DNA from: Mesorhizobium sp. M1D.F.Ca.ET.043.01.1.1
Lineage (GTDB): Bacteria > Pseudomonadota > Alphaproteobacteria > Rhizobiales > Rhizobiaceae
DNA length: 64,000 bases
Reading direction: 5' to 3'
Assembly: GCF_003952385.1 (NCBI RefSeq)
Contig: NZ_CP034444.1
Location: 4,216,001 to 4,280,000, forward strand
The notes below the pieces were generated by a model. The model had not been told where the DNA came from and did no database searches. It saw only the letters and a list, made by a program, of their open reading frames with translations. Positions 48,497 through 50,976 of this stretch are shown one piece after another; the first letter of the stretch is position 1, and each line of letters starts with the position of its first letter. Position numbers and translations under genes: made by a program.

Positions 48497-49810
48497 ATGA
48501 GATCTTTCCTCAATCCGCTCCTGGTGATCGCAGCGATGGCACTGGGCACGACTTTGGGCTCTGCCTTGCCGGCATTGGCTAAGGTTGAACTGAAGGTCAC
48601 CCAGGGCAATGTTGAGCCGCTGCCGATCGCCATCCCCGATTTTCAAGGGGGGCTTGGGCCACAGATATCGGAAATCGTAACCGCCGATCTGAAACGGTCG
48701 GGACTGTTCGCGCCGATCGACAAGGCTGCCTTTGTCGAAAAGATCACGAATCCGGACGCCGCGCCCCGCTATGAGGATTGGAAAGTCATCAACGCCCAAG
48801 CGCTGGTGACCGGCGCCGTGAGCAAGGAAGCCGATGGCCGCATCCGCGCGCAGTACCGGCTGTGGGACATTTTCGGCAACCAGCAGATGGCCGGCGAGCA
48901 GTTTTTCGCCAACGACGCCAATCAACGCCGTGTCGCGCACATCATCGCCGATGCGATCTATGAGAAGATCACCGGCGAGAAGGGTTATTTCGATACGCGC
49001 GTCGTCTTCGTCGACGAGTCCGGCGCCAAGAACGCGCGCAAGAAGCGGCTTGCCATCATGGACCAGGACGGCGCCAATGTGCGCTATCTCTCCGACGGTC
49101 GCTCGATCGTGCTGACGCCGCGCTTCTCGCCGAACCGGCAGGAAATCACCTACATGTCCTATGAGAGCGGGCAGCCGAAGGTCTATCTCTTGCAGATCGA
49201 GACCGGCCAGCGCGAGCTGGTCGGCAACTTCCCCGGCATGACGTTCGCGCCGCGCTTCTCGCCTGACGGCCAGAAGGTGATCATGAGCCTGCTGCGCGAC
49301 GACGGCAACTCCAACATCTTCGCCATGGATCTGAGAAGCCGCTCGACGACGCGGTTGACCGATTCGGTCGCCATCGACACCTCGCCGTCCTATTCGCCGG
49401 ACGGCTCGCAGATCGTGTTCACCTCCGACCGCGGCGGCGGCAGCGGCCGTTCGCAGATCTATGTCATGGGCGCCGACGGCTCCAACCCGCGCCGCATCTC
49501 GTTCGGCGACGGCGTCTACTCCACGCCGGTATGGTCGCCGCGCGGCGACCTCATCGCCTTCACCAAGCAGTCCGGTGGCGAGTTCCAGATCGGCGTCATG
49601 AAGACCGACGGTTCGGGCGAGCGCATCCTGTCCTCCGGCTTCCAGCAGGAAGGCCCGACCTGGGCGCCGAACGGTCGCGTTCTAATGTTCTTCCGCGACT
49701 CCGCCGGCGGACCGAAGCTCGTCTCCGTCGACCTCACCGGCCGCAACGAGCAGCAGATTCCAACCGCGAATTTTGCTTCGGACCCGGCCTGGTCGCCGCT
49801 GCTGGAATGA
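48497..49810 (+). CDS. tolB: Tol-Pal system beta-propeller protein TolB
   Basis: A 437-residue periplasmic protein: signal peptide ([25 protein letters not shown]), N-terminal domain, and a six-blade WD40-like propeller ('[25 protein letters not shown]', '[16 protein letters not shown]'). It binds Pal. Start ATG 48497. Directly after its stop the pal gene would be expected, but an IVP element intervenes. Confidence 0.97.
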
Positions 49811-49827
49811 GCGGGCGGGGAAGAAGA

Positions 49828-50281
49828 GGAATTGAAGAACTGGAGAATTGAAGAACTGAAGAATGGAGAAAGAAAGCAGCTACATCAAGCGCGCGAAGGA
49901 CTTGGAAGTCTATAGGCGCGCTTATGCAGTTTCCCTCGACGTTCATCGGGCCACGCTTGTCTTTCCGAAAATCGAGCAATACGCGTTGGCCGACCAAATG
50001 CGTCGATCCAGCAAGGCCATCTGCGCCAATCTGGCCGAGGGCTTCGCCAAGCAGACCCATTCCAAACCCGAATTCGCGCGGTTCATTTCGATGGCTATGG
50101 GATCCTGCAGCGAAGTTGAAACGTGGATTTCTTACGCGTTCGATCTTGGCTACATCACACAAGCGCAGCGCGACGAATGGCAGCAGTCCTATGTTCACAT
50201 TTATGGAATGCTGGTGAATCTGAGGGAGAAGCTGAAGTAAGCCTTTTCTTCAATTCCTCAATTCTCCAATTCTTCAATTCC
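49828..50281 (+). mobile_element. IVP cassette: four-helix-bundle gene between 36-bp inverted repeats
   Basis: Left arm 49828-49863 and right arm 50246-50281 are 36 bp each, inverted and identical except at 3 positions (left GGAATTGAAGAACTGG.., right ..CCAATTCTTCAATTCC). All three differences would be G-U pairs in the minus-strand RNA. The gene fills the space between the arms: its ATG starts on the last base of the left arm and its stop is 5 bp before the right. The arms themselves contain a repeated GAATTGAAGAA unit. The layout resembles an intervening sequence of 23S rRNA, but it sits between tolB and pal. Confidence 0.7.
49863..50240 (+). CDS. Four-helix-bundle protein (23S rRNA IVP / S23 family)
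   Basis: A 125-residue protein with the family pattern 'DLEVYRRAYAVSLDVHRAT', 'YALADQMRRSSKAICANLAEGFAK', 'EFARFISMAMGSCSEVETWISYAFDLGYIT' and 'LREKLK'. The family (PF05635/TIGR02436) is encoded by intervening sequences of 23S rRNA and includes Avd of diversity-generating retroelements. Its function is unknown, but it forms a basic homopentamer in characterised relatives. It is a foreign insertion in the tolB-pal junction and lies in the same direction as tol transcription. Confidence 0.9.
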   Translation: MEKESSYIKRAKDLEVYRRAYAVSLDVHRATLVFPKIEQYALADQMRRSSKAICANLAEGFAKQTHSKPEFARFISMAMGSCSEVETWISYAFDLGYITQAQRDEWQQSYVHIYGMLVNLREKLK

Positions 50282-50469
50282 CCTTTTTCACAGCTCGTCG
50301 CGTTTTGGCCGCATTTCCGCCTACGGTCCCCGCGCATTGTGAGCCTAGCGAAATCGGCCGAGGACGGCGGCTCGAAACGAAAAATTAACTGTGTTTCTTG
50401 AATGCCGGTTAACCCAAACGTGGTTACTGGGTGATCAACGAAATCACTCGAATGCGAAGGAGAGGCGGC

Positions 50470-50976
50470 ATGGGCCGTATCGCAGCACTTACCAGAAACC
50501 CGGCGATGATCGCGCTGGTGGCGGCGCTCGCCATCACCGGTTGCGCCTCGAAGAAGACGCCGAACAGCGCGGCCGATCTTGGCCTGAACGGCGCCGGCGC
50601 CGCCACGCCCGGCTCGGCGCAGGACTTCACCGTCAACATCGGCGACCGCATCTTCTTCGACACCGACTCCTCGTCAATCCGCGCCGACGCGCAGACGACG
50701 CTTGGCCGCCAGGCACAGTGGCTCAACCAGTACAGGCAATATGCCATCGTCATCGAGGGCCATGCCGACGAGCGCGGCACGCGTGAGTACAATCTGGCGC
50801 TGGGCGCCCGCCGCGCCGCCGCCACCCGCGACTTCCTGGTTTCCAAGGGCGTCGCGGCCAACCGCCTGAAGACCATCTCCTACGGCAAGGAACGCCCGGT
50901 CGCCGTCTGCGACGACATCTCGTGCTGGTCGCAGAACCGCCGCGCCGTCACCACGCTCTCGGGCGCCGGATCCTGA
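50470..50976 (+). CDS. pal: Peptidoglycan-associated lipoprotein Pal
   Basis: A 168-residue outer-membrane lipoprotein: lipobox 'LAITGC' after MGRIAALTRNPAMIALVAA, a flexible linker, and an OmpA-like domain ('ADERGTREYNLALGARRAAATRDFLVSKGV') binding peptidoglycan. Start ATG 50470 with AAGGAGAGG upstream; the frame opens 13 codons earlier. It has a strong terminator, so cpoB is a separate transcript or depends on read-through. Confidence 0.97.
   Translation: MGRIAALTRNPAMIALVAALAITGCASKKTPNSAADLGLNGAGAATPGSAQDFTVNIGDRIFFDTDSSSIRADAQTTLGRQAQWLNQYRQYAIVIEGHADERGTREYNLALGARRAAATRDFLVSKGVAANRLKTISYGKERPVAVCDDISCWSQNRRAVTTLSGAGS

What the first reader, a model, noticed from the sequence alone, without database searches (positions are those of the whole stretch)
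49828..50281. IVP gene packaged between 36-bp inverted repeats, inserted in the tolB-pal junction
Seen: the four-helix-bundle gene fills the space between two nearly identical inverted arms, its ATG beginning on the arm's last base. The three arm mismatches would all be G-U pairs in minus-strand RNA, as if the RNA duplex were kept by selection. Known: this protein family is encoded by 23S rRNA intervening sequences with complementary flanks. Inferred: this is a free-standing, probably mobile relative that landed outside rRNA in an essential operon. Its mobility mechanism and why it keeps the duplex are not described to my knowledge.
Basis: partly seen in the sequence, partly recalled or inferred. 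Interest (0 to 1): 0.85.

Follow-up and report, generated by a model that had tools for sequence, protein, structure and literature searches.

The report
Repeat-armed IVP gene cassette
A small gene of unknown job sits between two mirror-image runs of a short repeated DNA word; many bacteria carry relatives built the same way, and some also carry scattered gene-free copies of the repeats, which suggests a little-noticed kind of miniature mobile element.

Summary
The IVP gene (PF05635; 49863-50240) fills the space between two 36-nt inverted arms (33/36 identical) in the tolB-pal junction. This looks general: of 102 scored IVP loci from four phyla, 93 have inverted arms beating 60 shuffles, and in all 93 the best period is 7 or 8 (random segments: 12/300 pass; their periods peak at 6, 9 and 12). 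Units differ by lineage. One IVP inside a 23S rRNA has heptamer arms too. Gene-free convergent arm pairs are scattered in Mesorhizobium, and empty sites exist. In an unnamed proteobacterial family, GGGAATC/GGGATTC repeats, published for Xanthomonas, match the arms of accB-accC IVPs; 100 or more pattern hits occur only in genomes with an IVP (25/64 versus 0/85). The tolB-pal gene itself has not moved within the genus (50/51 at this site). Selection on an RNA duplex is not supported beyond a weak minus-strand G.U excess. Best reading: a REPIN/RAYT-like system in which a vertically inherited IVP recognises repeat arms that spread in trans. Recognition, movement and RNA processing are inferred, not shown.

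The parts
49828..49863 (+). 5' arm: about 4.5 tandem copies of an 8-nt unit GAAYTGRA, purine-rich on the sense strand
49863..50240 (+). IVP / four-helix-bundle gene, 125 aa, ATG to TAA
50246..50281 (+). 3' arm: inverted array of the same 8-nt unit
50280..50290 (+). CCCCTTTTTCA tract that looks shared with element-free alleles, where it is the 3' end of an intrinsic-terminator-like hairpin (read by eye)
48497..49810 (+). tolB, upstream neighbour; its stop codon lies 17 nt before the arm
   Evidence: TolB_N, PD40
50470..50976 (+). pal, downstream neighbour
   Evidence: OmpA family; 23; the name pal by position and recall

Best explanation
The locus is the gene-bearing form of a compact interspersed element: one PF05635 (IVP) gene between two convergent arrays of a 7- or 8-nt tandem unit. 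Shown: this anatomy is usual for IVP genes in the phyla sampled, the unit differs by lineage, an rRNA form shares it, gene-free convergent arm pairs of the same unit are dispersed in genomes, and sites have empty, gene-free, intact and broken alleles. Inferred: the IVP (the solved relative 2gsc is reported as a ring of five) recognises its own unit in RNA or single-stranded DNA and so helps the arm-loop-arm hairpin to be copied to new sites in trans, as is proposed for RAYT and REPINs, while the gene copy stays at one site and is inherited vertically. Also inferred: when co-transcribed, the arms close a long stem that RNase III can cut, as published for 23S IVS, and stop codons in the inward-facing units end translation entering from either side, so insertion at gene ends in operons and in rRNA is tolerated.
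For: Arms in 93/102 loci, period 7 or 8 in all 93 against 12/300 passing and periods peaking at 6, 9, 12 in controls. Arm pairs convergent in 22 of 22 and 26 of 26 pairs, none divergent; inner gaps 10-66 nt (one 158) or 376-414 nt. Empty alleles at a gene-free site (18 of 20 fetched) and at tolB-pal. GGGAATC/GGGATTC: 100 or more hits in 25/64 genomes with and 0/85 without an IVP, 30 or more in 35/64 and 4/85; accB-accC IVPs there carry that unit or near variants. All 51 genomes with a whole or broken tolB-pal-type IVP have the 8-mer arms, 52 of 95 others do (Fisher p 1e-10; partly built in, since the gene's own arms count). IVP in 23S rRNA with heptamer arms. 29 of 38 distinct units hold a stop read inward (21.3 expected, reached in 2 of 1000 permutations), 6 read outward (the 38 include related variants). 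Fold matches 2gsc (E 2e-7) and 2rld, and weakly (E 0.03) the Avd of DGRs.
Against: No movement seen: the tolB-pal gene is at one site in 50/51 carriers; twin copies on two Calothrix plasmids are a segmental duplication. No nuclease is known for this fold (recalled); the enzyme that would move the element is unidentified. 52 of 95 Mesorhizobium genomes without this IVP still have the arms, and 20 of 85 IVP-less genomes of family f36 have at least one hit. Hits are overlapping 21-nt windows, so one long array counts many times (G421: 6 forward, 206 reverse). Arm variant and genome variant correlate only weakly (rho 0.42, p 0.03, 26 genomes) with clear exceptions (G436, G421). Tests are not corrected for phylogeny. 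9 of 102 loci lack detectable arms. The stop-codon trend is not universal (e.g. GGGAACA, GGCGAAT). The reversed-pattern control is clean but not wholly in 66 (G449 1, G502 3) and 81 (G466 4).
Confidence: 0.5

Rival explanations
1. Static cassette plus ordinary microsatellites: the IVP gene was placed long ago, the arms grow and shrink by slippage, and the dispersed 7/8-mer arrays arise on their own without help from IVP.
For: Gene at one site in 50/51 carriers; arm copy numbers vary freely between species; arrays persist in genomes without the IVP; some high counts look like single long arrays; no transposition event seen.
Against: Dispersed arrays come mostly as convergent pairs with two gap classes, which slippage does not make; empty and filled alleles differ by a whole arm-loop-arm unit; high counts go with IVP presence.
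Confidence: 0.22
2. Trans-regulator: the IVP ring binds tandem units in 5' or 3' UTRs, controlling its own mRNA and a regulon marked by dispersed arrays; spread is secondary.
For: Homopentameric ring reported for the Xanthomonas protein (PMC4990558 passages); 5' arrays have a median of 4.6 units close before the start codon; Beggiatoaceae heptamers most often end 1 nt before a start codon (PMC4679880 passages).
Against: A gene-free pair also lies between what read as convergent genes (by eye), a poor place for 5'-UTR control; binding never tested here.
Confidence: 0.15
3. One reading: a stray 23S-rRNA intervening sequence whose RNA duplex is kept by selection for processing.
For: Same protein family and same kind of arms inside 23S rRNA; the element's RNA is strongly folded; a weak excess of minus-strand G.U, 124 to 93, p 0.04; IVS excision by RNase III is published (PMC4990558, passages).
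Against: The excess is not on the sense strand, which the operon transcribes; no locus-specific pairing; among the loci fetched only L250 (G357) was shown to lie in rRNA, and the others were not scanned for rRNA.
Confidence: 0.11

Closest known systems
23S rRNA intervening sequences with S23p/IVP ORF (Coxiella, Leptospira)
   Same: PF05635-type ORF between complementary arms; in Coxiella tandem heptamers stand directly before the ORF and vary in number between strains (PMC4990558, passages); L250 here is an rRNA case
   Different: The window element lies between protein genes; gene-free copies are dispersed; the passages seen do not present heptamer arms as a rule of the family
REPIN/RAYT (PMC3116915, abstract and outline)
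   Same: Inverted doublets with short loops dispersed in the genome, linked to a protein gene
   Different: Protein is a four-helix bundle, not a tyrosine transposase; arms are tandem 7/8-mers, not REP palindromes
Dispersed heptamer repeats: GGGAATC in Xanthomonas and GGGGA(C/T)T in Nostoc (PMC4692102, passages); TAACTGA in Beggiatoaceae (PMC4679880, passages)
   Same: Tandem heptamers, mostly intergenic, 70 and 75 convergent pairs in two Xanthomonas genomes; same unit as some accB-accC IVP arms found here
   Different: The passages seen give no link to an IVP gene; the Xanthomonas paper generally found no link to mobile elements; its supplements were not seen
Avd of diversity-generating retroelements (PDB 4dwl, 8ub7)
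   Same: Similar fold (E 0.03 or worse); kinship to PF05635 argued in PMC10053308 (passages)
   Different: Seven neighbouring ORFs are Tol-Pal and other household genes, none a reverse transcriptase

Membership tests
PF05635 / IVP (S23p) protein family | profile match over the curated cut-off and four-helix fold | tested here: met
   107.8 bits against a cut-off of 33.8; four helices, pLDDT 92.5; 2gsc E 2e-7, TM 0.87
23S rRNA intervening sequence | lies inside a 23S rRNA gene | tested here: not met
   lies between tolB and pal; only IVP in the genome
23S rRNA intervening sequence | complementary arms around the ORF | tested here: met
23S rRNA intervening sequence | excised from the transcript by RNase III | not testable with these tools
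   needs RNA data
REPIN/RAYT | RAYT tyrosine transposase | tested here: not met
   the element's only protein matches PF05635 alone in Pfam; four-helix bundle
REPIN/RAYT | inverted repeat doublets with short loops dispersed in the genome, plus a gene flanked by the repeats | tested here: met
MITE / insertion sequence | target-site duplication at insertions | tested here: inconclusive
   filled and empty alleles, read by eye, show replacement of the spacer rather than a clear duplication
Diversity-generating retroelement accessory protein (Avd) | reverse transcriptase gene next to it | tested here: not met
   seven ORFs between 46116 and 53860 were scanned: TolQ/ExbB, ExbD/TolR, TonB_2, TolB, OmpA, TPR and PP-loop families, no RT; the rest of the window was not scanned

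The most novel reading that the evidence does not exclude
The IVP family is the missing cause of the dispersed tandem heptamers of bacteria: each IVP lineage recognises and spreads its own 7- or 8-nt unit as arm-loop-arm hairpins, through an RNA or single-stranded DNA step with host enzymes, making a class of mobile element whose only protein is a nucleic-acid-binding ring with no nuclease; rRNA intervening sequences are the copies that landed in rRNA.
Probability: 0.38. Interest if true: 0.93.

Novelty: new variant of a known kind. Interest (0 to 1): 0.8.

Why it matters
It would join three loose ends with one rule: rRNA intervening sequences, free-standing 'four helix bundle' genes of unknown function in many bacteria, and heptamer repeats in Xanthomonas, Nostoc and Beggiatoaceae for which the passages seen name no cause. 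It turns 'what does the IVP protein do' into a direct test: does it bind its own repeat unit, and do new repeats appear only where it is present.

Tried and rejected
Rejected: base-by-base upkeep of an RNA duplex as the main cause, though a weak minus-strand G.U excess remains. Rejected: recent movement of the tolB-pal gene within Mesorhizobium. Tried without result: phage records (no match at E 1e-5); Calothrix twin plasmids as evidence of transposition (segmental duplication); neighbour orientation by mechanical ORFs (both neighbours confident in only 17 of 41 diverse loci, 14 ++ and 3 --; it called '-' downstream of 10 of 30 tolB-pal loci, where pal is known to run the other way, so it is weak and not used). 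Arm-variant specificity inside family f36 came out weak. Paper searches on IVP genes with repeats or heptamers: searches found no paper; of the rest I saw listings and read passages or outlines of five papers; none of what I saw states the rule. The library holds open-licence PMC papers only. Two scripts failed and were rerun (as 27, as 54); one search used a wrong pattern and was redone.

Full report
1. The observation. The window holds an IVP gene, 49863-50240, between a 36-nt arm (49828-49863) and its inverted copy (50246-50281), with three mismatches, in the tolB-pal junction of a Tol-Pal cluster. The protein is PF05635 at 107.8 bits; its model (pLDDT 92.5) is four helices and matches PDB 2gsc from Xanthomonas campestris (TM 0.87), 2rld, and more weakly (E 0.03) the Avd protein of diversity-generating retroelements. 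The sense RNA of 49808-50300 folds at -196.6 kcal/mol, z -6.2, with the arms as closing stem. The genus is Mesorhizobium by the record titles of 30 of 31 related loci.

2. Each arm is itself a tandem array of an 8-nt unit, GAAYTGRA. I scored 102 IVP loci with non-identical flanks: 30 Mesorhizobium loci, the 30 closest tolB-pal-type loci, 25 loci fetched, one Pedobacter locus and 16 plasmid loci, mostly cyanobacterial. L145 was dropped for a short flank. In 93 of 102 the best match of the upstream flank with the reverse complement of the downstream flank beats all of 60 shuffles: 30/30, 30/30, 19/25, 1/1 and 13/16. The nine misses are L137, L147, L148, L149, L156, L159, L197, L199 and L205. Of the 93, the best tandem period from 5 to 12 is 7 in 55 and 8 in 38, and no other. 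Of 300 random segments 12 pass; over all 300 the best periods peak at 6, 9 and 12, with 48 at 7 or 8. Many of the 93 are vertical copies: collapsing the tolB-pal group (30) and the group nearest to L003 (22) leaves 43 groups, 34 with period 7 and 9 with period 8, still not all independent. A further 20 and 30 loci were read by eye, not scored; many show such arrays, L256 gave no hit to my queries, and in several no 3' array lay in the printed stretch.

3. Units differ by lineage: CAGTAGG between an acyl-CoA dehydrogenase-like gene and a downstream dehydrogenase, AGTGAGT at nuoC-nuoD, GCAGTAGG, GGGATTC at accB-accC, GGGACTC at carA-carB, GGGAACA and GGTGACA on cyanobacterial plasmids (the names of these neighbours are by eye and recall). 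In genome G357 one IVP lies in a stretch that is 23S rRNA (Rfam RF02541, 1323.8 bits) and its arms are heptamers too; the same genome has others not in that stretch (L155, L248). Published work on the Coxiella IVS notes tandem heptamers directly before the ORF, variable in number between strains (PMC4990558, passages).

4. The arms occur without the gene. The own genome has one IVP but three places with the arms; the other two are inverted arm pairs with a short loop and no gene. In the genus the 8-mer pattern occurs in 103 of 146 genomes and the CAGTAGG pattern in 98 of 146, with no hit of either pattern read backwards. Of 30 loci fetched for each pattern, 26 (8-mer) and 22 (CAGTAGG) are pairs, all convergent and none divergent, with inner gaps of 10-66 nt (one 158) or 376-414 nt; the rest are single arrays or were missed by my motif. 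Several of these loci are the same site in different species. At the L042 site the 30 best-matching genomes carry the hairpin; of 20 fetched because the match split there, 18 have 37-39 nt between the same anchors and two carry an unrelated insert. By eye, in the empty alleles two convergent genes end stop codon to stop codon, and the element lies at that point.

5. tolB-pal alleles. Of the 30 junctions next to the pal genes most like the window's, 15 hold a gene-length insert (not all with an open frame), 12 have arm or gene remnants without the gene, 3 have neither; of 20 further genomes chosen to look for empty sites 17 clearly show an intrinsic-terminator-like hairpin in place of the element and 3 are unclear (read by eye). 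Filled alleles lack the spacer and the 5' half of that hairpin but keep a CCCCTTTT-like end. IVPs of this type, whole or broken, sit within 1.5 kb of pal in 50 of 51 genomes; several are broken. So the gene looks like an old, vertically inherited and in places decaying resident.

6. Link between gene and dispersed repeats. All 51 genomes with this IVP have the arms, as do 52 of the 95 others; this is partly built in, as the gene's own arms are counted. In family f36 (unnamed; I take it to be Xanthomonadaceae or close, an inference) 64 of 149 genomes have an IVP. GGGAATC or GGGATTC hits: at least one in 50/64 genomes with and 20/85 without an IVP, 30 or more in 35/64 and 4/85, 100 or more in 25/64 and 0/85. 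Hits are overlapping windows, so long arrays weigh heavily; the backward control gave a few hits in G449, G502 and G466. Of 30 loci examined there 26 stand directly before an accC-like start, with such units or near variants on both sides. Arm variant against genome variant: rho 0.42, p 0.03, with exceptions. None of these tests is corrected for phylogeny. Rehm et al. described the GGGAATC repeats in Xanthomonas, including 70 and 75 convergent pairs in two genomes, and generally found no link to mobile elements (PMC4692102, passages); its main text does not name XCC0516, the protein of 2gsc.

7. Function of the arms. Complementarity is at the level of the unit, not base by base: own-locus arms are no better partners than those of other species at the same site. 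G.U pairs: 93 on the sense strand, 124 on the minus strand, p 0.04 with related loci counted as independent. Read inward, 29 of 38 distinct units contain a stop codon (21.3 expected from permuted letters; some units are close variants of each other), read outward 6. Since 7 and 8 are not multiples of 3, the 5' array closes all three frames in 57 of 93 loci, the 3' array read in the sense direction in 1 of 93. That would let an element sit at gene ends without run-on translation from either side. It is a tendency, not a rule.

8. Reading. I favour a REPIN/RAYT-like relation between a resident IVP ring and dispersed arm hairpins, with RNase III processing of transcripts. Anatomy, its breadth, empty sites and the association are shown; recognition of the unit by the protein, movement, and RNA processing are inferred. 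The enzyme that would do the moving is unknown.

Noticed in passing
L195 (Anabaena sp. 90 pANA02) and L199 (Pseudanabaena galeata pPg_01): IVP gene between cas6 and cas4 of a CRISPR-Cas operon (cas1d annotated in L195) on plasmids of two cyanobacterial genera; heptamer arms in L195, none that beat the shuffles in L199.
   Followed up: no
L385 and L386: At the site of the gene-free hairpin two genomes carry a different insert instead, so this intergenic spot takes different small elements.
   Followed up: no
L042 1890-2010: In filled alleles the convergent GNAT-like gene seems, by eye, to end inside the arm, its last codons and stop being supplied by the repeat.
   Followed up: partly
G421 and G542 (contig C32): Strongly one-sided GGGAATC counts (6 forward, 206 reverse) in G421, and long GGGATTC arrays in G542.
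   Followed up: no
L204 (Azospirillum lipoferum 4B AZO_p2): IVP-like reading frame with heptamer arms where the PLSDB gene table, which is incomplete, lists no gene.
   Followed up: no
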